64,000 nt of DNA. Source: Natronomonas aquatica (GTDB lineage Archaea > Halobacteriota > Halobacteria > Halobacteriales > Haloarculaceae). The stretch is from the NCBI RefSeq assembly GCF_024449025.1, contig NZ_JAHLKM010000009.1, forward strand, positions 1 to 64,000. Reading direction: 5' to 3'. Under the pieces are notes generated by a model that was given only the letters and a program-made list of their open reading frames with translations, searched no databases and was not told where the DNA came from. Every line of letters starts with the position of its first letter. The stretch's first letter is position 1. This document shows, piece by piece, positions 12,394 to 24,307 of this stretch. The translations under genes were made by a program, and so were the position numbers.

Positions 12394-12467
12394 GCCGCCT
12401 TAGCTCAGACTGGGAGAGCACTCGACTGAAGATCGAGCTGTCCCCGGTTCAAATCCGGGAGGCGGCA
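12394..12467 (+). tRNA. tRNA-Phe (GAA)
   Basis: 74-nt cloverleaf. The acceptor stem GCCGCCT/AGGCGGC has discriminator A (12467). The D arm is TAGCTCAGACTGGGAGAGCA. The anticodon stem CTCGA/TCGAG has loop CTGAAGA and anticodon GAA (12428-12430). The T arm is CCCCGGTTCAAATCCGGG. No CCA is encoded and no intron is seen. Its 3' end is the left boundary of an integrated island. Confidence 0.97.
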
Positions 12468-12491
12468 TTACACTCACAGTTCAAATGCCTG
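12457..12491 (+). repeat. attL-like direct repeat at tRNA-Phe 3' end
   Basis: 35 bp starting GGGAGGCGGCATTACACTCA, identical to 19003-19037. It begins in the T-arm/acceptor part of tRNA-Phe and runs 24 bp past its end. Such a duplicated tRNA 3' end is the mark of a tyrosine-integrase integration event. Confidence 0.9.
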
Positions 12492-12772: not shown

Positions 12773-14170
12773 ATGGCCAGCCAGCGGTTCGTCAACCGCG
12801 GGGACGAACTCGAATTGCTAAACTCGCAGTTCGAGAACGACAGTGCCGAACTGATCGTCGTCTACGGGAGACGACGACTCGGCAAGAGTGCGCTCGTTCG
12901 CGAGGCAGTCCGGGAACGTGCGGACGCCGTCTACTGGCAGGCAACCGAGGAGACCGCGGCCGCACAACTCGCTAACTTCGTCGACACGGCCAGGGAGACG
13001 TTTCCACTCTTGGGGGACATTCAGCGCGACTGGGAGGCATTGCTCCGGGCACTCGGTCGCGAAGACGCAATCGTCGTCCTGGACGAATTTCCCTATCTCG
13101 TCGAATCTGACGACTCGCTCCCGTCGAAAATACAGCGCGTCTGGGACACGCAGCTCGAGGAGACGGACACGACACTCGTGCTCGTCGGCTCGTCGATCAG
13201 CATCATGGAAGACAAGGTCCTCAGCGGTGGCAGCCCGCTGTACGGCCGTCGGACGGCGACCATCGACCTTCCGCCACTTGACCTCGCGGATGCACGGCAG
13301 TTCTACCCTGGTGACGACCCGGACGAGATCATCCAAGCCTGGAGTGTCTTCGGCGGAACGCCGTACTATCTTCAGGCGCTCGACCCATCCCGCTCGCTAG
13401 CCGAGAACGTTCAGTCGCAAGTACTCTCGGAACATGGTGTTCTTCACAACGAACCGGAGTTCCTGTTGCGGGCGGAGTTCGGAATCCGGGAACCGCAGAC
13501 CTACTACACGATTCTCCGGGCAATCGCGACCGGCAAACGGGCTGCCAACGAAATCGCTGGCTTCGCCGGGGTCGACTCCAACACGCTGGGTTCGTACCTC
13601 TCGAAGCTCCGTCGACTACGTCTCGTCGAACGCGATATTCCCGTGACCGCCAATCCTAACTCGACGCGGAAGAGTCGTTACCGGCTGAAGGAACCGCTGT
13701 TCCGGTTCTGGTTCCGGTACGTCTACGGCCAGCAGGGAGAGCTCGTCCAGCTCGGCGAGGACGCCTACGAAGAGATGGTCGAACCGACCTTCACCGACTA
13801 CATGGGGACGATGTTCGAGCGAGTCTGTCAGAACGCGCTTCCGTCACTGATCCCCGAGACGTACCATGGCATCGGCTACTGGTGGCACAAGCAACACGAA
13901 CTCGATGTTGTGGGACTCGCGAGTGATGGGACACTCGTCGCAGGAGAGTGTAAGTACACTAACCGCGAGATGACCGAGGGAGACTTGGCCGAACTCGAAC
14001 GGACAGCATCGGAGGTCCAGTGGTCGCCATCCAACGAAAGCGACCGGACAGAGCAGTACTGCTGTTTCTGTCGATCCGGGTTTTCCGATGGCCTGCAACA
14101 GGTGGCTGCGGAACGCGACGACGTGTCACTGTTCACACCCAGCGAAATCGTGCCAGGTGACAGTGAGTGA
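12773..14170 (+). CDS. Archaeal ATP-binding protein with DUF234-type nuclease-like tail
   Basis: 465 aa. The N-terminal P-loop NTPase starts FVNRGDELELLNSQF and has Walker A VVYGRRRLGKSALV and Walker B IVVLDEFPYL. It continues into a winged-helix part (about 240-310) and a C-terminal domain with a restriction-endonuclease-like pattern (ELDVVGLASDGTLVAGECKY). This architecture is the archaeal AAA/DUF234 family, common in mobile and accessory regions. A purine-rich AGGAGGT directly abuts the ATG, too close to act as a normal Shine-Dalgarno site. It is convergent with the ERCC4 nuclease gene and is the first gene after tRNA-Phe inside the island. Confidence 0.85.
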   Translation: MASQRFVNRGDELELLNSQFENDSAELIVVYGRRRLGKSALVREAVRERADAVYWQATEETAAAQLANFVDTARETFPLLGDIQRDWEALLRALGREDAIVVLDEFPYLVESDDSLPSKIQRVWDTQLEETDTTLVLVGSSISIMEDKVLSGGSPLYGRRTATIDLPPLDLADARQFYPGDDPDEIIQAWSVFGGTPYYLQALDPSRSLAENVQSQVLSEHGVLHNEPEFLLRAEFGIREPQTYYTILRAIATGKRAANEIAGFAGVDSNTLGSYLSKLRRLRLVERDIPVTANPNSTRKSRYRLKEPLFRFWFRYVYGQQGELVQLGEDAYEEMVEPTFTDYMGTMFERVCQNALPSLIPETYHGIGYWWHKQHELDVVGLASDGTLVAGECKYTNREMTEGDLAELERTASEVQWSPSNESDRTEQYCCFCRSGFSDGLQQVAAERDDVSLFTPSEIVPGDSE

Positions 14171-14683
14171 TTACGAAGTATCTGCAAGTCGTCGCGCCAG
14201 ACTGTGCCGTACGAGCAACAGGAACGCACACAGCGTGGCTCGTCGGCGTGTCTCGACGAAGTGAAACGCGACGTTGTAGTGGCGGGCCCACGCCGTGACC
14301 GTCCCGACGACCTGAGCAGGATGGATGTCCCGTCTCGCCATGCACCCGCGATTACCGAGCAGCGTTTGCCACGATGTCTCGACAACAACGGGTAGGGGAT
14401 GTGACCATTCGGCTGCTCGCTGTAGTTCACGCTCGAATCGGTCTCGCTCCCAGGTAATCGCAGTGAGGAAGTCGCAGCCGGACTTGCGTTCGACTGCGAA
14501 GTGGGGGCGATACGTGTCGAGTTCCGGGTCGTGGGTACAGTATCTCGGGACGGCGTAGTCTCCTGTCGAGAGCGTCACATCTCGTGTCTCTACCGGGAGT
14601 GTATCGAACGTCCACGGACGCTGTTCGCGCGTGTCCCGCAGGACTGTCGTCGGAATCGGACGCCGCTCTCGTCGCTCGGTCAT
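14171..14683 (-). CDS. ERCC4/XPF-type nuclease
   Basis: 170 aa, essentially one ERCC4 nuclease domain. VLRDTREQRPW opens the fold, then STGDYAVPR, and AVERKSGCDFL supplies the GDX(n)ERKX3D active site in full. There is no helicase part and no C-terminal (HhH)2 domain, unlike Hef or XPF. It would cut branched or flap DNA, or act with a separate helicase, which the island supplies (15514-17901). Its stop abuts the stop of the convergent ATPase gene at 14170. It lies downstream of the SWIM gene on the same strand with a 74-bp gap. Confidence 0.88.
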   Translation of the reverse strand: MTERRERRPIPTTVLRDTREQRPWTFDTLPVETRDVTLSTGDYAVPRYCTHDPELDTYRPHFAVERKSGCDFLTAITWERDRFERELQRAAEWSHPLPVVVETSWQTLLGNRGCMARRDIHPAQVVGTVTAWARHYNVAFHFVETRRRATLCAFLLLVRHSLARRLADTS

Positions 14684-14757
14684 CGGTTGAGGCTGGGCTC
14701 GGTATCACGGGTAAATGTTCGCCGAAGCCACACTCCTCGATGACAGTACGGCGTCGC

Positions 14758-15490
14758 TCAAAACCCGGCCTTCTCCAGTTCGTCGAGAAACGCCGGGCGG
14801 TTCGAGTGTTTCTCCTTCAGGAAGTCGACGAACTCCTCGAACCGCTCTTCGGGGACGAGTTGCTGCATCCCTTCGAGGTGGTCAGCAATCGTTCGGTAGT
14901 GACGCCGTCCCGTCTCGCCAGCGGCAAACGGGACGAGCAGTTCGTGGTAGCACTCGAAGTATTCGACCGGATCGACGGTTGCGACCGGGTCCCGATACCG
15001 GCGCACTGACGAGAGATCGTCGCTGTCTTTCAGTTCCGCAAACGCTTTTTCGAGGTCACCTTCGTGGACGTACATGGCGATGAGCTTCTGCCGGTCGTCC
15101 GCGAACTGTCGCTCGAACTCCTCGTAGAGTGACTGCCACTTTTGATCGTCACAGACATCTTTCAGGTCGTCGTAGGCTGCCCACTCGGTATGGTCGAGAA
15201 AGAGATCTTTCAGCGTGCGACGGTACGCGTCCGAGTCGTGCTCTTGGCAGAACCGCGACGACGTGCTTGCAGTCGCCACCACCGTCGTAGGGACAGGTAC
15301 ACCGCGTATCGATGCCCCGTCCGCTGAAATCTACAGTCACGTCGTACAGATTCGAGCCACTGACAGCCGCGGTAACGAGGTCGTCGAACCGGTCGAGCCG
15401 CTGAATCCGCCTTTCGTCGCGGTAGTTCTCGCCGCGCTCGAACACGGCATCGGAACTCCGATTTCGGATGGTCTCTCTATCGACGTTCAT
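14758..15490 (-). pseudogene. SWIM zinc-finger gene, disrupted by a frameshift
   Basis: From the ATG at 15490 (MNVDRETIRNRSSDAVFERG) the frame encodes a SWIM motif, CTCPYDGGGDCKHVVAVL (CxCx(n)CxH). It then loses homology, and the next part continues in a different frame from about 15265 (FCQEHDSDAYRRTLKDLF...) to a stop at 14758. SWIM proteins of haloarchaea usually have a longer middle part, so an internal deletion joined out of frame at GTTCTGCCAAGAG is the likely cause. If no recoding occurs, only an N-terminal SWIM peptide with an unrelated tail is made. It sits between the helicase and ERCC4 genes, same strand. Confidence 0.7.
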
Positions 15491-15513
15491 GCCTCGTCGT
15501 TCGACGTGGGGAA

Positions 15514-17901
15514 TTAATCTGATTTCGGTGTCCCGTCGTCGGCCTGTCGGCTCGGATCGGCCAGTGCCATCGTGAGCGTCGCCGCGAGGCGCTTGTCCAG
15601 CGGTTCGTTTGCTCGGCCACAGTGTGGTGACTGGATACACGCCGGACAGCCGTCCGAACACCCGCAATCGGCGAGCAGTTCCCACGTGTGTTGGAACAGT
15701 CCCTCGATGTGGTCGTATCCATTACGAGCGAGTCCGACACCACCGCGGTAGCTGTCGTAGATGAACAGCGCACTTGTCTCTGCCTGCGGGTGGTCCGTCG
15801 TCGAGACGCTCCCGACATCCCGACGGTCACAGAGGATAACGAGTGGAAACGTGGCGACGAGGGCGTGCTGGACGGCGTGGAGTCCACCCTCGAATGAGCC
15901 GGACATCGTCTGCATCAGTCGTTCGAGTCCCGGCGGAAGTGTCACGTACAACGCTTGCGTTGACAGTGTCGTCTCGGGCAGGTCGAGTGGCTCCTCGCTC
16001 AGTATCTCGCCTGTTCGGTGGTCACGCCGCTGGAATCCGGTGACCTGCTTGCGCCGAGTCACGTCCGCGAAGTGGACCGTAACGTCGTCGCGCGTCGCCA
16101 GTGGCTTGGTGGCAACGTCTTCCTCGATAGTCATCGACTCCTCGTACTGAACGCGGGTCTGGTGGTCACTCTCCGTCGGCGTGAGCCACGCCGCGTCGCG
16201 GTCCAGGTCGAGTGACTGGACTTCGTAGTTCTGGCCCTGATGATGGTAGATCGCGCCCGGGTGAACGTCCCGGAGCGCAGCGTCGAACGGGAGTTCCCCG
16301 AGTCTGTCGGACTGACCGCCTCGAACCCGAAGGACGACAGTGCGTTCGGTGATCGTTCGGAGCCCCTGGTTGTAGGGATTCACCGCTCGTCCGCTGGCGG
16401 TTCGTTGCCATTCGAGGCCATCGGCTGTTTGCCGTCGGGACAGTTCGCCCTCCTCGGTGAGGCCACTGACGATGTCGGGGAACGTCGGGCCGAAATACTG
16501 TTCGTCGGCGGTTCGAAGCGGCTGTTCGACGGCCGCAGCGTGAGCGTGCAGTTGGAGGAGGTGCGGATTCGATGGGTTGGCGACGGCACGCTCGGGTGTC
16601 TGCTCGAACAGTTCCTGCGGGTGCTTGATCACGTACTGATCGAGTTGGTCCTCGCTGGCGACGAGCGCGACGAGACTCGGTTCCGTCCCCCGGCCAGCGC
16701 GGCCGGCTCGCTGGAACGTCGACATCTGCGTCCCGGGATACCCGTCCAGTAGTACGGCATCGAGACTTCCGATGTCGACGCCCAGTTCCAGTGCGCTCGT
16801 ACTCCAGACGCCGGCACACTCGTCCGTGTGCAGTGCTGTCTCGATTGCCGCTCGGCGGTCGTCACGCAATCCAGCGTGGTAGGCCGTGACGTTCTCGGCA
16901 AGATTGCTTTCGCCGTGCTCTGTGAGTGTGTCGCTGCTGATGGTGGCGTAGCGTTCGGCCGTCTGTCTGGCGCGCGTAAACGCCACTGTCTGGTATCCCC
17001 GCTGGACGAGGTCGACGAACAGTCGCATGGTTTCGCCGTGGTGGGAGCGGCGTTGTCCTGCACCAGCTGGTGCATCGCCTTCGTCGTATTTCGGTGGTTG
17101 CCAGAACAGCCAGTGTGTCGGCCCGGTTTCGCTGGTGTCCTGGTCGACGAGGACGAACGAGTCGGTTGGTTGCCCGGTAATCGTCGCTGCGTGTTCCCGT
17201 GGATTTCCGATTGTCGCGGAACAACACACGAACTGCGGGTCGGCACCGAGACGGTCACACATTCGGGCTAACCGGCGGCAGACCAGACCGACGTGACTGC
17301 CGAAGACACCGCGGTACTCGTGCACCTCGTCGACGACGACGAGTTCCAGTGACTCGAAGAAGTCTCGCCAGATGTCGGTCGCGTGGCTGAGCAGTCCACA
17401 GTGGAGCATATCCGGCGTCGTCAGAACCATGCACGGTTCGTCGTCACGGGCCTGCTGGCGTTCGTCCGAAGCGAGTGCCCCCGTATACTGGGTCACGGAA
17501 ACGTCGTCAAACGGCGCAGCAAAATCAGAGAGTGTCGCCTCCTGATCGTTGATCAACGCGACCTGTGGCCCGATATACAGCATCCGACCGTCGTGGTCAC
17601 GTGCGCGTTCGAGCGCAGGAATCGTGTACGTCAGGCTCTTGCCGCTGGCCGTCGGCGTGGCCAGCACGACGTTCTGGCCGGTCCGGACTGCTTCGATGGC
17701 GTCGGTCTGGTGTGCGTAGAGTTCGCCGATGCCCCAGTCGCCAAGCAGGTCCGTGACCTTGGGGTTCATCGTACAGGATTGGGTGACAGGTCTACGTGCG
17801 GGTACCTCCCGCTGGAACTGTATCTGGTCGTGGTAGTAGTCCCGGTCCTGCACCCACTCGGCGAACTCGTCCACTGTGGGAAGATAGGGACGGGACCGCA
17901 T
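15514..17901 (-). CDS. MrfA-like DEAD/DEAH superfamily 2 helicase with C-terminal zinc motif
   Basis: 795 aa. Motif I is ATPTASGKSL, motif II VVVDEVHEYRG, motif III CCSATIGN and motif VI QRAGRAGRG. The C-terminal domain (DUF1998/MZB-like) has the cysteine cluster CGCSDGCPACIQSPHCGRAN that marks the MrfA (mitomycin repair factor A) branch of 3'-5' helicases. An N-terminal lead of about 55 residues precedes the Q-like motif LYAHQTDAIEAV. Known relatives act in DNA crosslink repair with a partner nuclease; here an ERCC4 nuclease and a SWIM gene follow on the same strand. It is divergent from the coiled-coil gene at 17985. Confidence 0.88.
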   Translation of the reverse strand: MRSRPYLPTVDEFAEWVQDRDYYHDQIQFQREVPARRPVTQSCTMNPKVTDLLGDWGIGELYAHQTDAIEAVRTGQNVVLATPTASGKSLTYTIPALERARDHDGRMLYIGPQVALINDQEATLSDFAAPFDDVSVTQYTGALASDERQQARDDEPCMVLTTPDMLHCGLLSHATDIWRDFFESLELVVVDEVHEYRGVFGSHVGLVCRRLARMCDRLGADPQFVCCSATIGNPREHAATITGQPTDSFVLVDQDTSETGPTHWLFWQPPKYDEGDAPAGAGQRRSHHGETMRLFVDLVQRGYQTVAFTRARQTAERYATISSDTLTEHGESNLAENVTAYHAGLRDDRRAAIETALHTDECAGVWSTSALELGVDIGSLDAVLLDGYPGTQMSTFQRAGRAGRGTEPSLVALVASEDQLDQYVIKHPQELFEQTPERAVANPSNPHLLQLHAHAAAVEQPLRTADEQYFGPTFPDIVSGLTEEGELSRRQTADGLEWQRTASGRAVNPYNQGLRTITERTVVLRVRGGQSDRLGELPFDAALRDVHPGAIYHHQGQNYEVQSLDLDRDAAWLTPTESDHQTRVQYEESMTIEEDVATKPLATRDDVTVHFADVTRRKQVTGFQRRDHRTGEILSEEPLDLPETTLSTQALYVTLPPGLERLMQTMSGSFEGGLHAVQHALVATFPLVILCDRRDVGSVSTTDHPQAETSALFIYDSYRGGVGLARNGYDHIEGLFQHTWELLADCGCSDGCPACIQSPHCGRANEPLDKRLAATLTMALADPSRQADDGTPKSD

Positions 17902-17984
17902 ATATCGATACGGCTCTCCCGGTCTGGCCCAGTGAGTTCACCGGTCACCCGACCCTTTTATTCGATGGTGGCATAGCGGTATCC

Positions 17985-18956
17985 ATGCCGTTCAGCGTCA
18001 GTTGGCACACGTTGCTCGACGAACTCGACGACCTGTCTGACGGTGCGGAACTCATCACACCGCTCTCTCACGACCGGTTCCGGATCACAGACGTGCAGGA
18101 ACACCGTGTCGTCGTCAGGTTCACCGAGACGGGGGACAGGCGGCCGCTACAGCGCGATCAGTTCGAGACGCTCTACCGTCGGATACAGGAAACAAACAAT
18201 AAATTCGGCCTCGACCGCCTGCCACCAGACGCAGATCCGTATCCCGCCGTATTGAGCCTCCACCCCCGGTTCGAGATCGACGAACAGCGAGGGACCATCA
18301 CGGAACAAGACGGCGAGACCGCCACGCAACTGGTGAGTGACGACGCAGAGACGGACGACACGGAGCGCGTCGAACCCGACGGACTCGATGTCTACTCCGA
18401 CGCGTTGCTGCTTATCGACGCACTCGAACGCCACCATGTGTCCGATCTCACGGAGCTGGAGACGAACGCGCTGGTGAATCTCTACACGCTGTGTTCGGAT
18501 GTCCAGCGGAACGCAAACGAGTTCAGGCAGAACATCGCGGATGTGTTGCTCGACCGGCTGCATCACGACCAGCCGGTCCACGGTCAGTACGGGTCCGTCC
18601 AGCGAACCGCTCGCCGCAACCGCTCGCTCAAGGACGACGAACTCGTGTTGAATGCCTTCGAGGCTGCCGGGATCGAGCGCAAACGACTGACGACCGTCGA
18701 CGCGAACAAGGTCGACGAGGCGCTCGACGTAACAGAGCTCTCCGAGAGCGATGTTTACGAGATCGACAAGAGCGAGTACGTCCGGAAAGCAGAGGTCGAC
18801 GAGGAGGTCAAAGAGTCACGCCTCCAGGGGCTGAAAGACCGGCTGGCAGCGAGCGAAGAGGCGGAAACCGACGATCTGCGACGGGAGATCGAGGAACTCG
18901 AAGACCGTATCGACGACCTCACCAGTTTCAGTACCGGGACCCAGATGCAGAGCTGA
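17985..18956 (+). CDS. Uncharacterised island protein with C-terminal coiled coil
   Basis: 323 aa from the ATG at 17985 (MPFSVSWHTLLDELDDL). The frame is open further upstream, but that part lies in the divergent promoter and overlaps the helicase start. No known domain is recognised. The first 90 residues look like a small beta-rich fold, the middle is helical, and residues 255-320 form charged helices ending in a coiled coil (RREIEELEDRIDDL). Position next to the helicase, head to head, suggests joint function or regulation. The right end of the island lies 47 bp after its stop. Confidence 0.65.
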   Translation: MPFSVSWHTLLDELDDLSDGAELITPLSHDRFRITDVQEHRVVVRFTETGDRRPLQRDQFETLYRRIQETNNKFGLDRLPPDADPYPAVLSLHPRFEIDEQRGTITEQDGETATQLVSDDAETDDTERVEPDGLDVYSDALLLIDALERHHVSDLTELETNALVNLYTLCSDVQRNANEFRQNIADVLLDRLHHDQPVHGQYGSVQRTARRNRSLKDDELVLNAFEAAGIERKRLTTVDANKVDEALDVTELSESDVYEIDKSEYVRKAEVDEEVKESRLQGLKDRLAASEEAETDDLRREIEELEDRIDDLTSFSTGTQMQS

Positions 18957-19002: not shown

Positions 19003-19037
19003 GGGAGGCGGCATTACACTCACAGTTCAAATGCCTG
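19003..19037 (+). repeat. attR-like direct repeat
   Basis: Perfect 35-bp copy of 12457-12491, lacking the rest of the tRNA gene. It defines an integrated segment of about 6.5 kb. The ATGCTGGGAGGCG part recurs at 20777-20789. Confidence 0.9.
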
Positions 19038-19642: not shown

Positions 19643-20143
19643 CTACTCACGTACAGAACCAGGTCCGACGGGTCGTCCCTGTTCCCATTCGACCGCGCGG
19701 ACCGCGTCTGGAAGCGAGGTGAGTCTGCGCTCAACGACGTCCAGCGGATGTGAGTCGATGAACGGCGCTGGTTCGTGCGTGACGGGTGTCGCGCCGTCGT
19801 TCACTTGCAGATGAACTGGCCCAAGGTCGTCGTGCGTGTCGTCCTGATGCCAACCCACCAGCAGACTTCGGTCTGGCTCGATCCAGTTGAACCAGTAGTA
19901 TCCGTGCGGCTCGCCGGTCTGCAATTGAAACCCGGTCTCGATCCGCGCAGCCGTTACCGAATACTCGTCGTGATCGAGGAACTGCCGTGGGTCTACCTCA
20001 GCGACGACCCGGTATGAGCCGGCTTCACGCGGCTCAGCACGTCGCCGTCGAACGTTCTCGAACGCACCGCTAAGCCGATTCTGGATACTGTCGTGGAGCC
20101 GCTTGCTCTGCAAGTTCGCCCGGTTAGCGAGGAAGACGGCCAT
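19643..20143 (-). CDS. Uncharacterised haloarchaeal protein coupled to HTH regulator
   Basis: 166 aa, no recognised domain. The middle (DEYSVTAARIETGFQLQTGE, then GYYWFNWIEPDRSLLVGWHQDD) looks beta-rich. Its ATG overlaps the stop of the upstream HTH gene (TAATG arrangement), so the two are translationally coupled. Such pairs of a wHTH protein and a small unknown protein are frequent in haloarchaeal mobile regions and could be a regulator/effector or toxin-antitoxin-like unit; there is no direct proof. Confidence 0.65.
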   Translation of the reverse strand: MAVFLANRANLQSKRLHDSIQNRLSGAFENVRRRRAEPREAGSYRVVAEVDPRQFLDHDEYSVTAARIETGFQLQTGEPHGYYWFNWIEPDRSLLVGWHQDDTHDDLGPVHLQVNDGATPVTHEPAPFIDSHPLDVVERRLTSLPDAVRAVEWEQGRPVGPGSVRE

Positions 20144-20682
20144 TAGGCGAGTGTCGAGGGAGAGTCAGTCCGCGGTGACGAGAGTTCCACGACGTCATCG
20201 TACAGTTGGAGGGCATGTTTCACGAGCCCGAGTTCCGTGTTGATCGCCTCCCACGTGGCGATCACGTTGCGACGCTCACGAAGCTCCTCTGTCGAGAAGT
20301 CCTCGTCCGCGAGTTGTTCCCGGAACTCATCGAGCGAACTGACCTCGTACTCCGCAGCCAGCTCTTCTTGTTCCTCCTTTAACTCTGTGAGCTGGCTCTC
20401 CAGTTCGTCACGCGAATGAACCTCGATCAGGTCGGTCACCTCGTCGAAGAGCATCCGTACGGGATTCAGATCGTAGGCTTTCGTCCCGTCGACAGTCGTT
20501 TCCGTGGCCCAGTCGTCGCTCTCCAGTCGCTTTAGTTCATCGTCGGCTGTTGCGCGGGAAACTTCGGCTCGGTCCGCGATCTCTTGCACCGGCGTTGGTT
20601 CGTCCAGTAGCTCCACGACGTGCCGGACGCGCTCACGCCCGCTCGTTGTCTCCGTCCACGATTCTGGTTTCGATTCAGCCAT
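20143..20682 (-). CDS. Winged-helix transcriptional regulator with coiled coil
   Basis: 179 aa. The N-terminal helix-turn-helix (about 18-70: VVELLDEPTPVQEIADRAEVSRATADDELKRLES) is typical of ArsR/MarR-like archaeal regulators. It is followed by a long charged coiled coil (about 90-140) and a C-terminal helical part. It is likely a DNA-binding repressor of its own two-gene operon. It lies outside the 35-bp repeat pair but between att-like remnants. Confidence 0.75.
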   Translation of the reverse strand: MAESKPESWTETTSGRERVRHVVELLDEPTPVQEIADRAEVSRATADDELKRLESDDWATETTVDGTKAYDLNPVRMLFDEVTDLIEVHSRDELESQLTELKEEQEELAAEYEVSSLDEFREQLADEDFSTEELRERRNVIATWEAINTELGLVKHALQLYDDVVELSSPRTDSPSTLA

Positions 20683-20776
20683 TCGACTAGGTCTTGGACG
20701 GCCCTGTTCAAATAATTTATCTTGGTTCAGATATTCAGACGGGGCGTGATTTGTCCTTCGGTGGAAGGCGGTTCAG

Positions 20777-20789
20777 ATGCTGGGAGGCG
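20777..20789 (+). repeat. Partial att-like remnant
   Basis: ATGCTGGGAGGCG, 13 bp identical to 18998-19010 (left flank plus start of the attR repeat). The similarity ends there. It could mark the far end of a second, decayed insertion that carried the HTH gene pair. Confidence 0.35.
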
Positions 20790-20823
20790 ACGTTCCTCTG
20801 CGACCAAGCAGAATACCGATCGG

Positions 20824-21879
20824 TCAGTGGGCCCGGTCGCCCTCGATGAACTCCTCGGCCGTCCGATCACCGGCCGCGAACGCGGCTGCTCGAGCGTCGA
20901 TCGCGTCGGGTTCAAGCATAGCATGAGAGACGAGCAGCCGTTCGAGTGCCGTATGCCACTGGTCGTAGTAGATGCGTTCGGTTGCCGCAGCGTCGGCCCC
21001 TCGGTCGCGGTCGTCGTCGGTCGCGTAGGCGCCGGTGGGTGTCGCCTCGACCGCCTCGATCAACCGCCGCTGGAAGGCCGACCAGTCGAAACTGCCGCCC
21101 CCATCGTACAGGGCGACGGTTACGCCGAAGGCGCGTGCCTGCCAGGGCTCCGAGAACGTCGGCTCCGCGTCGACGCCGAGGAGGTCCGCGAAGGCGCCGT
21201 CGGGATCCGCGTGTCCCCCGTCGGCTTTCGATCCCGCGTCCGTCGTCCCGTGATCGAGCCGTTCGACGCCGATCATCGAGTCACGCGTGACAAGATTCGC
21301 GAGTTCGTCCTCGTCGTATCCCTCCGTTCCATCGGGGCGTCTCGGCAGGACCATGTACCTGATTTCGGAGCTGGAATCCCAGACATCGATGTCGATTCCA
21401 CCGTCGATTTCGAGCCCGAACTCATCGAGGACGGCTCGCGGCTCGCGGACCATTCGGGACCGATAGGACGGCGTCTTGTACCACGTCGGGGGGAGCCCGA
21501 GCAGCGACCACGGGTAGCACGAACACAGGGTACAGACGACGGCGTTGTGGACATCGGCGGTGTTTTTCTTCACCTCGATATGCTGGATACCGACGTCGAA
21601 ATCGAACTCATCGATCGCGGCCGGGGCGTCCTCGAGGAGCCGCTCCTCGAAGGCGGGGTCGGTCCACGCCCGGGCGACGACCCGGGCTCCGTTCTGTGGG
21701 CCGATATCGCGTTCGTAGGCGGCTATCGCCTCGTCGATCGCGTCCGTCGAGACGATCCCTTTCTCGACGAGCAACGATTGGATCGCCCGAACGCGGGGAC
21801 GTGGATCGGCGGCCGTTTCGTCGTGGTCGTGTCCGGAATCGTGGTCGTGGTCGTGATCGTGGTCGTGATCGTCGGTCAT
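20824..21879 (-). CDS. Nitrile hydratase alpha subunit fused to activator-like domain
   Basis: 351 aa from the ATG at 21879, which overlaps the beta-subunit stop as ATGA. Residues 4-21 are an Asp/His repeat ([10 protein letters not shown]...), a possible metal-collecting leader. Residues 25-235 are the alpha subunit with the metal claw [11 protein letters not shown] (C116, C119, C121); Thr in CTLCSC is the cobalt-type form. After a linker, residues from about 250 ([20 protein letters not shown]...) resemble the nitrile hydratase accessory/activator protein (related to the beta N-terminus), normally a separate gene. The enzyme hydrates nitriles to amides. No amidase or aldoxime dehydratase is adjacent. 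Confidence 0.9.
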
Positions 21880-22562
21880 CGTTCGTCCTCCGTAGGTCGC
21901 AGATACGGTTCCCAGAGATCGACGTGAATCGTATCGTCGGGATCTTCGGCATCGGGGCCCCACACCTCGTCGGCGTCGAAGGCGACGGTGTACAGCGGCT
22001 CGTCGCGTTCCTCGCCGTGGGCGCTGGCGTCCGGGAAGACGTGGTTCCCGTGGAGGGATCGGATTTTACCGGTCGTTCGCCGGACGTAGCGCGGACAGCG
22101 GGTGTGTCCCTCGGGATGGTTGTTGCGCACTCGAACCGCGTCTCCTTCGGCGAACTGGGGCTCGTCGTCCGGCCGGTCGAACGATGCCGGCCGTCGGAAC
22201 GCTTCTCTGACTCGCTCGGCGAGGTCGGGATCCAGCCGTTCGGGAACGAGATCCGCGGGGTTTTCGAGGTCTCGCGCGCGCTGGTGGGCGGCCTCGATCT
22301 CGTCTTCAGTGAGGTGGCCTTTTTTGACGAGGTTTCGCTCGAGGCTCGCCAGCCAGCGCTCGAAGTACGTCGCCGCGAGGTAGTCCGCTGGCGCCATCCG
22401 TTCGATGCCGTGGCGGCTCTCGTCGATGTTGTAGATCCCCTGTGGCCGGATCGTACGCACTAACGCGAAGACGACGCGCTCCCAGTCCGCATGGAACTGG
22501 GCGTCGTCGACGGGGACGGCCCCGAAGCCGTGTATCCCGCCCATATCGTGGATGCCGTTCAT
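21876..22562 (-). CDS. Nitrile hydratase beta subunit
   Basis: 228 aa. I place the start at the ATG at 22562 because [14 protein letters not shown] is the conserved N-terminus of beta subunits; the frame is open further upstream but without homology. The C-terminal SH3-like part ([19 protein letters not shown], then [12 protein letters not shown] and DLWEPYL) is typical. It pairs with the alpha subunit to form the active site. Order is beta-alpha with 4-bp overlap. Confidence 0.93.
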
Positions 22563-22795: not shown

Positions 22796-22875
22796 GAGTA
22801 GAGTAGAGTAGAGTAGAGTAGAGTAGAGTAGAGTAGAGTAGAGTAGAGTAGAGTAGAGTAGAGTAGAGTAGAGTA
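22796..22875. repeat. Pentanucleotide microsatellite (GAGTA)16
   Basis: Sixteen perfect head-to-tail copies of GAGTA, 80 bp, ending about 35 bp upstream of the TATA-like box of the transporter gene at 22940. Purine-rich strand with no coding role. Variation in copy number would change spacing of upstream promoter elements. Confidence 0.97.
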
Positions 22876-22939
22876 GGTAGGTCACGGATCGCAACCCGAT
22901 AGCGACGGAGTATTAACAGCAGGTTCGTTCAGCACATAC

Positions 22940-24307
22940 ATGGGACGTGAAACGTGGGGAACCCGGATCGGGTTCATTCTCGCGGCGGTCGGAAGCGCAG
23001 TGGGACTAGGTAACATCTGGCGGTTTCCGTTCCAGGTCGGCCAGGAGGGAGGCGCAGCCTTCATGGTCATGTACCTCGCCTTCGTGTTGCTGATCGGCTT
23101 CCCGGCGATGCTCGCGGAGTTCGTCGTCGGACGGAAGACCGGCCTGAACGCGGTCGGTGCGATCCGGGAGTTCGCCGGCGGCGTGTGGCAGTACCTCGGT
23201 GGCCTGTTCGTCCTCATCGGGTTCGTCATCCTCTCGTATTACAGCGTGATCGGCGGGTGGGTGCTCCGATACGTCGTCGGGAGCGCTACCGGCGGGTACG
23301 TCGGCGACGCCGCACAGGGTGAACCGCCGGTCGCCGCCCAGTTCTTCGCCGAGATCGCGTCCGGATGGGACGCGCTTCTCTTTCATGCGATATTCATGCT
23401 GCTCGTCGTCGGCATCGTGGCGTTCGGCATCCAGCGGGGGATCGAGATCGGTGTCAAGGTGATGGTCCCGGCCATCTTCGTGATCTTCGGGGTGCTTTCG
23501 GTGTACGCGTTCAGCCTCCCGGGGGCCGGGGAAGCGTACGCGTATTATCTCTCGCCAAACTTCGAGTACATCGTCGCGAACTGGCAAAGCCTGGTGCCGG
23601 CCGCGGCCGGGCAGGGCTTTTTCACGCTGTCTCTCGGGATGGGCGTGATGATAACGTACGCGTCGTATCTCGGTTCCGACGAGAACCTCGCGATCGACGG
23701 CACGAGCATCGTCGTGTTGAACACCTCCGTCTCGGTCCTGACCGGGCTGATCGTCTTCCCGATCCTGTTCACGGCGGGGCTGGATCCGGAGACCTCCGGG
23801 CCCGGGGCGCTTTTCATCAGCGTCGCGGATGCCCTCGGTAGCCTTCCGTTCGGTCGCGTCGTCGGCACCCTCTTTTTCGCCACGGTCGCCATCGCCGCGC
23901 TGTCCTCGGCGATCAGCCTCATCGAGGTCGTCGTCTCCTATGCGATCGACGAGTTCGGTATGGACCGGGCGAGGGCGACCGTGATCGTCGGGGCCGGCAT
24001 CTTCCTTCTGGGGGTCCCCGTCACCGTCGATACGGTGTTCGTCGACCTCTATGACATGCTCGCCGCACAGATCCTGCTCGTGCTGGGCGGGATCCTGCTG
24101 ATGGTCGCCATCACCTGGCTCCACGCGGACGAGGCGGTCGAGGAACTCCGGGAGGGAATCGGAGACCTCGGCGCCGTCGGCACGCTCTGGATCTGGATGG
24201 TTCGGATCCCGGTCGTCGCCGTCCTGATCGTTTCGCTGTATCTCGGTGTTACCGGATACCTGGAGTTCCTACAGGGGCCCTTTGCTGACTTCCTCGCCTC
24301 GAGGTAG
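22940..24307 (+). CDS. Neurotransmitter:sodium symporter (NSS/SNF) family transporter
   Basis: 455 aa, about 11-12 transmembrane segments. The family signature is at the N-terminus: GFILAAVGSAVGLGNIWRFPF, with the unwound TM1 sodium and substrate site. The family (LeuT-type) imports amino acids or related compounds with Na+. Length is normal for prokaryotic members. It is preceded by the GAGTA microsatellite. Substrate unknown. Confidence 0.9.
   Translation: MGRETWGTRIGFILAAVGSAVGLGNIWRFPFQVGQEGGAAFMVMYLAFVLLIGFPAMLAEFVVGRKTGLNAVGAIREFAGGVWQYLGGLFVLIGFVILSYYSVIGGWVLRYVVGSATGGYVGDAAQGEPPVAAQFFAEIASGWDALLFHAIFMLLVVGIVAFGIQRGIEIGVKVMVPAIFVIFGVLSVYAFSLPGAGEAYAYYLSPNFEYIVANWQSLVPAAAGQGFFTLSLGMGVMITYASYLGSDENLAIDGTSIVVLNTSVSVLTGLIVFPILFTAGLDPETSGPGALFISVADALGSLPFGRVVGTLFFATVAIAALSSAISLIEVVVSYAIDEFGMDRARATVIVGAGIFLLGVPVTVDTVFVDLYDMLAAQILLVLGGILLMVAITWLHADEAVEELREGIGDLGAVGTLWIWMVRIPVVAVLIVSLYLGVTGYLEFLQGPFADFLASR

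What the first reader, a model, noticed from the sequence alone, without database searches (positions are those of the whole stretch)
14171..18956. Candidate DNA-repair or defence cassette: MrfA-like helicase, SWIM protein, ERCC4 nuclease and divergent coiled-coil protein
A helicase with the MrfA cysteine motif is followed on the same strand by a SWIM zinc-finger gene and a stand-alone ERCC4 nuclease with a complete GDX(n)ERKX3D site. A novel coiled-coil protein is head to head with the helicase. MrfA in Bacillus works with a nuclease (MrfB) on crosslinks, and an XPF-type nuclease without its own helicase needs a partner. The set sits on a mobile island. I know of no described system with this composition.
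Basis: partly seen in the sequence, partly recalled or inferred. Interest (0 to 1): 0.8.

Follow-up and report, generated by a model that had tools for sequence, protein, structure and literature searches.

The report
Truncated mobile helicase-nuclease cassette at tRNA-Phe
A salt-loving archaeon carries, next to a transfer-RNA gene, a shortened copy of a mobile gene set that in other haloarchaea holds two DNA-unwinding enzymes, two DNA-cutting enzymes and two zinc-finger proteins; the set recurs across several families, appears undescribed, and probably cuts out damaged or foreign DNA.

Summary
The gene set is real and recurs in other haloarchaea, but the window holds a deletion derivative. 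In Haloarcula, Halorubrum and other genera the full cassette is: CC323 (the 323-aa protein), divergent from the YprA/MrfA-type helicase, then SWIM1, DUF259 and a CcbP-like gene, then Bax1 nuclease and XPB helicase on the opposite strand, then SWIM2 and ERCC4, usually ending at tRNA-Cys or tRNA-Phe.

In the window one deletion joins the SWIM1 N-terminus to the SWIM2 C-terminus out of frame and removes Bax1-XPB. Helicase, ERCC4 and CC323 are intact. A perfect 35-bp repeat (tRNA-Phe 3' end; just past CC323) bounds the element, and two same-genus genomes lack it at tRNA-Phe. No recognised integrase lies inside.

CC323 is a common haloarchaeal plasmid protein. The helicase is of YprA/MrfA type, but no MrfB was seen, and the set does not fit DISARM, Dpd, ARMADA or BRIGADE.

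Most likely it is a mobile, excision-repair-like DNA-cutting module: XPB-Bax1 and ERCC4 make the two incisions and the YprA-type helicase strips the DNA. Defence is somewhat likelier than accessory repair. Function is untested.

The parts
12394..12467 (+). tRNA-Phe(gaa), insertion target
   Evidence: ARAGORN; identical or 97-99% tRNA in relatives
12457..12491 (+). element end repeat, copy 1: last 11 bases of tRNA-Phe plus 24 bases
   Evidence: 35-bp perfect direct repeat
12773..14170 (+). ATPase_2/DUF234 ATPase, cargo found only in this copy of the cassette
   Evidence: Pfam; PADLOC PDC-S27 E 1.4e-49; absent from the other cassettes
14171..14683 (-). stand-alone ERCC4 (XPF-type) nuclease, 170 aa, intact active site
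   Evidence: Pfam E 1.3e-12; phrog_3490 E 1.8e-33; alignment; pN/pS 0.16-0.28
14758..15236 (-). remnant: C-terminal ~160 residues of SWIM2
   Evidence: 79% identical to SWIM2 residues 490-648 of L026; junction
15248..15490 (-). remnant: N-terminal SWIM1 with its zinc finger, out of frame with the SWIM2 remnant
   Evidence: 67% identical to SWIM1 of L026; Pfam SWIM E 7e-7; frames
15514..17901 (-). YprA/MrfA-type SF2 helicase with MZB zinc domain; the true start may lie downstream of 17901
   Evidence: Pfam, TIGR03817 658 bits, PDB YprA, tree
17985..18956 (+). CC323, 323-aa conserved plasmid/element protein, terminal gene of the element
   Evidence: phrog_35116; 69 plasmids; alignment; cassette clade
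19003..19037 (+). element end repeat, copy 2, 46 bases past the CC323 stop
   Evidence: 35-bp perfect direct repeat
19643..20682 (-). neighbouring second insertion: DUF7342 HTH gene and its 166-aa partner
   Evidence: Pfam DUF7342; follows tRNA-Phe directly in G016
20770..20799 (+). degenerate third copy of the tRNA-Phe 3' end
   Evidence: repeat D5; start of homology with the G015 site lacking both insertions

Best explanation
The window carries a deletion derivative of a tRNA-targeted integrative cassette. The complete cassette is most likely a mobile DNA-excision machine resembling nucleotide excision repair: XPB opens the duplex, Bax1 cuts on one side (XPG-like), ERCC4 cuts on the other (XPF-like), the YprA/MrfA helicase strips the DNA, and the two SWIM proteins help recognise the target or assemble the complex. 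Its use is somewhat more likely defence against invading DNA (about 0.5) than accessory repair (about 0.3). Gene content, order, ends and the deletion are shown by sequence; the division of labour and the role are inferred. In this genome the local copy keeps only helicase, ERCC4 and CC323 intact. It is either decaying or served by separate copies of Bax1-XPB, SWIM1 and SWIM2 on other contigs.
For: Fixed gene order in several genera and three families. Bax1 and XPB identified by Pfam and solved structures. Bax1 with XPB is described as XPG-like (PMC7293015). ERCC4 active site intact. Cassette helicases of families f1, f4 and f7 form one clade, 100/100. End repeats and same-genus sites without the element. 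Purifying selection on helicase, ERCC4 and CC323. Patchy: ERCC4 in 16 of 392 genomes. UvrABC alone accounts for dark repair in Halobacterium (PMC1590041), so XPB/XPF-type enzymes there lack an assigned repair role. Parts in trans: C18, C22, C44.
Against: No biochemical or genetic data. The helicase is of the repair (YprA/MrfA) type, not the DISARM/Druantia type. No methyltransferase or other self-marking gene was recognised. PADLOC has no model of this set. ERCC4 lacks the (HhH)2 domain that XPF-type nucleases normally use to dimerise. Some genomes carry ERCC4 without the rest.
Confidence: 0.5

Rival explanations
1. Accessory DNA repair: the same enzymes mend bulky lesions or crosslinks in host DNA, as a portable supplement to UvrABC in strongly irradiated brines.
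For: Helicase closest to YprA/MrfA; XPB-Bax1 is a repair complex (PMC7293015); XPB damage-recognition domain present.
Against: Patchy and mobile distribution with frequent decay; UvrABC is sufficient for dark repair in Halobacterium (PMC1590041).
Confidence: 0.3
2. Hotspot hitch-hiking: unrelated genes gathered at tRNA sites by repeated insertion and have no common function.
For: tRNA-Phe in this genus shows several partial end copies and varied cargo. ERCC4 occurs without the rest in several genomes (L021, L035, L050). Cargo between SWIM1 and SWIM2 varies.
Against: Fixed order and strands of up to ten genes in several genera and three families, with the helicase clade restricted to it.
Confidence: 0.1
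3. Element machinery: CC323 and ERCC4, the two outermost genes, serve integration, excision or replication of the element itself, in place of an integrase.
For: CC323 is the terminal gene next to the end repeat, ERCC4 the tRNA-side gene, and both persist in the most reduced copies; no integrase match on contig C4.
Against: CC323 shows no recombinase signature in Pfam or PDB searches; ERCC4 nucleases cut branched DNA and are not known to recombine att sites; host integrases could act in trans.
Confidence: 0.07

Closest known systems
MrfAB (YprAB) mitomycin C repair pair of Bacillus subtilis
   Same: The helicase is YprA/MrfA-type along nearly its whole length, with MZB domain.
   Different: No MrfB exonuclease recognised; ERCC4, Bax1, XPB and SWIM proteins instead.
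Archaeal XPB-Bax1 helicase-nuclease complex
   Same: Full cassettes carry both genes, adjacent.
   Different: Here bundled with a YprA helicase, two SWIM proteins and ERCC4 on a mobile element; lost from the window.
DISARM, Druantia, Dpd, ARMADA, BRIGADE (YprA-helicase defence systems, PMC12458937)
   Same: Mobile multigene set built around a YprA-family helicase with separate nucleases.
   Different: Helicase of the repair type; no methyltransferase, BrxHII-like helicase, PLD nuclease or 7-deazaguanine genes recognised; that paper has no mention of SWIM, XPB or ERCC4.
Haloviral ERCC4 nucleases (HRTV-7, HSTV-2, HCTV-6 and others)
   Same: Same stand-alone nuclease family, about 46% identical.
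   Different: Viral copies lie in tailed-virus genomes, without the cassette as far as annotated.
tRNA-integrated archaeal elements with tyrosine integrases (PMC8371274)
   Same: tRNA 3'-end direct repeats and sites without the element in relatives.
   Different: No recognised integrase inside.

Membership tests
YprA/MrfA helicase | SF2 core plus MZB (DUF1998) zinc domain over the YprA length | tested here: met
MrfAB repair system | adjacent MrfB (DEDDh exonuclease) gene | tested here: not met
   no exonuclease domain among the window genes or the cassette genes scanned; some cassette genes have no Pfam match
MrfAB repair system | needed for mitomycin C survival | not testable with these tools
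   needs deletion strains
XPF/ERCC4 nuclease | GDX(n)ERKX3D active site | tested here: met
XPF/ERCC4 nuclease | (HhH)2 dimerisation domain or fused helicase | tested here: not met
   170 aa, only the ERCC4 domain found
XPB-Bax1 | adjacent XPB and DUF790 genes | tested here: met
   met in full cassettes; absent from the window cassette; a separate pair lies on contig C44
DISARM | DrmA plus separate DrmB plus methyltransferase/PLD nuclease | tested here: not met
BRIGADE / Dpd | 7-deazaguanine genes, PLD nuclease, usually two YprA-family helicases | tested here: not met
   none among scanned cassette genes; definition from PMC12458937
tRNA-integrated mobile element | direct repeat of the tRNA 3' end at both ends, and sites without the element in relatives | tested here: met
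tRNA-integrated mobile element | integrase encoded inside | tested here: not met
   no Phage_integrase match on contig C4; Pfam of window genes
Anti-virus defence system | protection against infection | not testable with these tools
   needs an infection assay

The most novel reading that the evidence does not exclude
The full cassette is an archaeal immune system that works by excision-repair-style dual incision (XPB-Bax1 plus ERCC4, with a YprA-type helicase), carried on a tRNA-targeted element that moves without its own recognisable integrase.
Probability: 0.35. Interest if true: 0.8.

Novelty: new variant of a known kind. Interest (0 to 1): 0.6.

Why it matters
The role of the eukaryote-like XPB, Bax1 and XPF-type enzymes in haloarchaea is open, since UvrABC alone accounts for dark repair in Halobacterium (PMC1590041). 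Finding them bundled in a mobile, often decayed cassette suggests an accessory role, perhaps immunity, that can be tested by moving one segment of about 12 kb into a tractable host. It also adds a YprA-helicase gene set that was not found in the literature searched.

Tried and rejected
Structure prediction of CC323 (3 sequences, pLDDT 41) and of ERCC4 (6 sequences, pLDDT 37) was too poor to use, so no fold search was made. CC323 relatives in phage records and viral contigs: none, despite its PHROG model. SWIM2 in viral contigs: none. ERCC4 on plasmids: only a distant Bacillus hit. The synteny test with the gene left of the tRNA failed because tRNA-Phe is not near that gene in the relatives; searching with the tRNA itself worked. 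CC323-helicase as the core unit was rejected: plasmid CC323 copies have varied neighbours. An intact SWIM protein was rejected. Literature searches for this composition found no description; the library lacks most subscription papers.

Full report
WHAT IS THERE. The window is haloarchaeal (3.2 Mb genome, window on contig C4). The helicase, ERCC4 and 323-aa genes are present as stated. The helicase (15514-17901, -) has DEAD, Helicase_C and MZB domains, its best NCBIfam model is TIGR03817 (658 bits, below that model's cut-off of 874), and it matches solved B. subtilis YprA over nearly its whole length. ERCC4 (14171-14683, -) has an intact active site, conserved in ten sequences except for one G-to-A next to a catalytic D. 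The 323-aa protein (CC323) is phrog_35116 and is widespread on haloarchaeal plasmids (69 records).

THE SWIM GENE IS BROKEN. In relatives there are two SWIM genes, SWIM1 (about 265-283 aa, next to the helicase) and SWIM2 (648 aa, next to ERCC4), 36% alike over the N-terminal part. In the window, SWIM1 homology ends after CKHVVAV (about 15248), SWIM2 homology resumes at residue ~490 (about 15236), and the two are in different frames. One internal deletion, starting just past the similar zinc-finger stretches of the two genes, explains this and the missing genes. Reduced copies with other break-points occur in L020, L025, L027/L045, L036 and L039.

THE FULL CASSETTE. Gene order, with CC323 on the left: CC323(-); [p533]; helicase, SWIM1, [p343, p407, p210], DUF259, CcbP-like(+); [DUF5615-like]; Bax1 and XPB(-); SWIM2, ERCC4(+); often a DUF7342 HTH pair; tRNA. 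Names beginning with p are this report's labels for proteins without a known family, by length. All core genes are present in L040, L043 (Haloarcula vallismortis ATCC 29715) and L044 (Halorubrum sp. GN11); L042 has them too, but its helicase is internally deleted (residues 45-496 missing). The set is spread over broken contigs in G277 and G186, and partial in L038, L060 and L066. A plasmid copy lies on Haloarcula sinaiiensis pHsi204, with a helicase remnant and insertion sequences and without ERCC4. Identifications: Bax1 = DUF790, E 1.6e-131, with solved Bax1 structures; XPB with its damage-recognition domain; the 122-aa gene = CcbP; a 593-aa cargo gene of L038 is a TnpB.

FREQUENCY AND DESCENT. 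In 392 sampled genomes of the class: ERCC4 16, SWIM2 24 at a looser cut-off, cassette-clade helicase (80% identity or more) 7, Bax1 59 at E 1e-100. Cassette helicases from families f1, f4 and f7 form one clade with 100/100 support, and its inner branching does not follow the families, which indicates horizontal transfer. Thirteen of 14 cassette CC323 proteins also form one clade apart from plasmid CC323. pN/pS is 0.15-0.28 for helicase, ERCC4 and CC323; for the SWIM2 remnant it is 0.21-0.30 against the window, which mostly reflects time before the truncation.

THE ELEMENT. A perfect 35-bp repeat joins the tRNA-Phe 3' end (12457-12491) to a site 46 bp past the CC323 stop (19003-19037). A third, degenerate copy lies at 20770-20799. 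In same-genus G015 tRNA-Phe is followed, after about 100 bp, by sequence 92% identical to window 20769-22187. In G016 it is followed by the DUF7342 pair without the cassette. So the window has two tandem insertions. At tRNA-Cys, the core GGCCCTTGGCT sits 109-121 bp past CC323 in six cassettes (at +125 with one mismatch in L039), with a conserved element end on one side and variable DNA on the other. No tyrosine integrase match lies on contig C4; the genome has 20 matches elsewhere.

HOW IT MAY WORK. Bax1 in complex with XPB is XPG-like and cuts one side of a bubble (PMC7293015). XPF-type nucleases make the 5' incision in eukaryotic excision repair (PMC1590041). MrfA is a 3'-5' helicase acting in repair (PMC12458937). 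The full cassette therefore holds an opener, two opposite incision activities and a stripping helicase. Defence is favoured slightly because the cassette is patchy, mobile and often decayed, and because UvrABC alone accounts for dark repair in Halobacterium (PMC1590041). Against defence: the helicase is of the repair type and no self-marking gene was recognised. CC323 is the terminal gene of every placed element but has no recognised domain, and its model was too poor to use.

LIMITS. Distributions come from a sample of genomes. That the composition is undescribed rests on an open-access library and a handful of searches. Several cassette proteins (p533, p343, p407, p210) had no Pfam match, so a distant integrase or methyltransferase among them is not excluded. 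The SWIM frameshift could contain a sequencing error, but the loss of the genes between SWIM1 and SWIM2 cannot be explained that way.

Noticed in passing
G000 contigs C18, C22, C44 (L017, L058, L059): Separate copies of cassette parts in the same genome: SWIM1 (77% identical), full-length SWIM2 (63%) near a DUF7342 pair, and a Bax1-XPB pair (73/78%). They might serve the truncated copy in trans.
   Followed up: partly
window 19643-20682: A DUF7342 HTH gene and its partner form a second insertion at the same tRNA-Phe site; related pairs flank ERCC4 in several tRNA-Cys and tRNA-Phe loci.
   Followed up: partly
L087, L089, L093 (same-genus tRNA-Phe loci): Partial tRNA-Phe 3'-end copies lie about 100-125 bp from the tRNA in several relatives, so this tRNA is a repeatedly used insertion site.
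   Followed up: partly
L030 (Halobacterium salinarum R1 plasmid PHS1): CC323 lies two genes from a DUF790 (Bax1) and DEAD/DEAH helicase pair on a plasmid, so CC323 and Bax1-XPB also meet outside the cassette.
   Followed up: no
L060: A cassette with CC323, helicase, two SWIM genes and p343 but no Bax1, XPB or ERCC4 lies between copies of tRNA-Gly(gcc).
   Followed up: no
window 22796-22885: A run of about 17 tandem GAGTA units upstream of the sodium-symporter-like gene at 22940.
   Followed up: no
window 12773-14170: The DUF234 ATPase matches PADLOC candidate family PDC-S27 (E 1.4e-49); a 40% relative lies near tRNA-Phe in G005 (L089).
   Followed up: no
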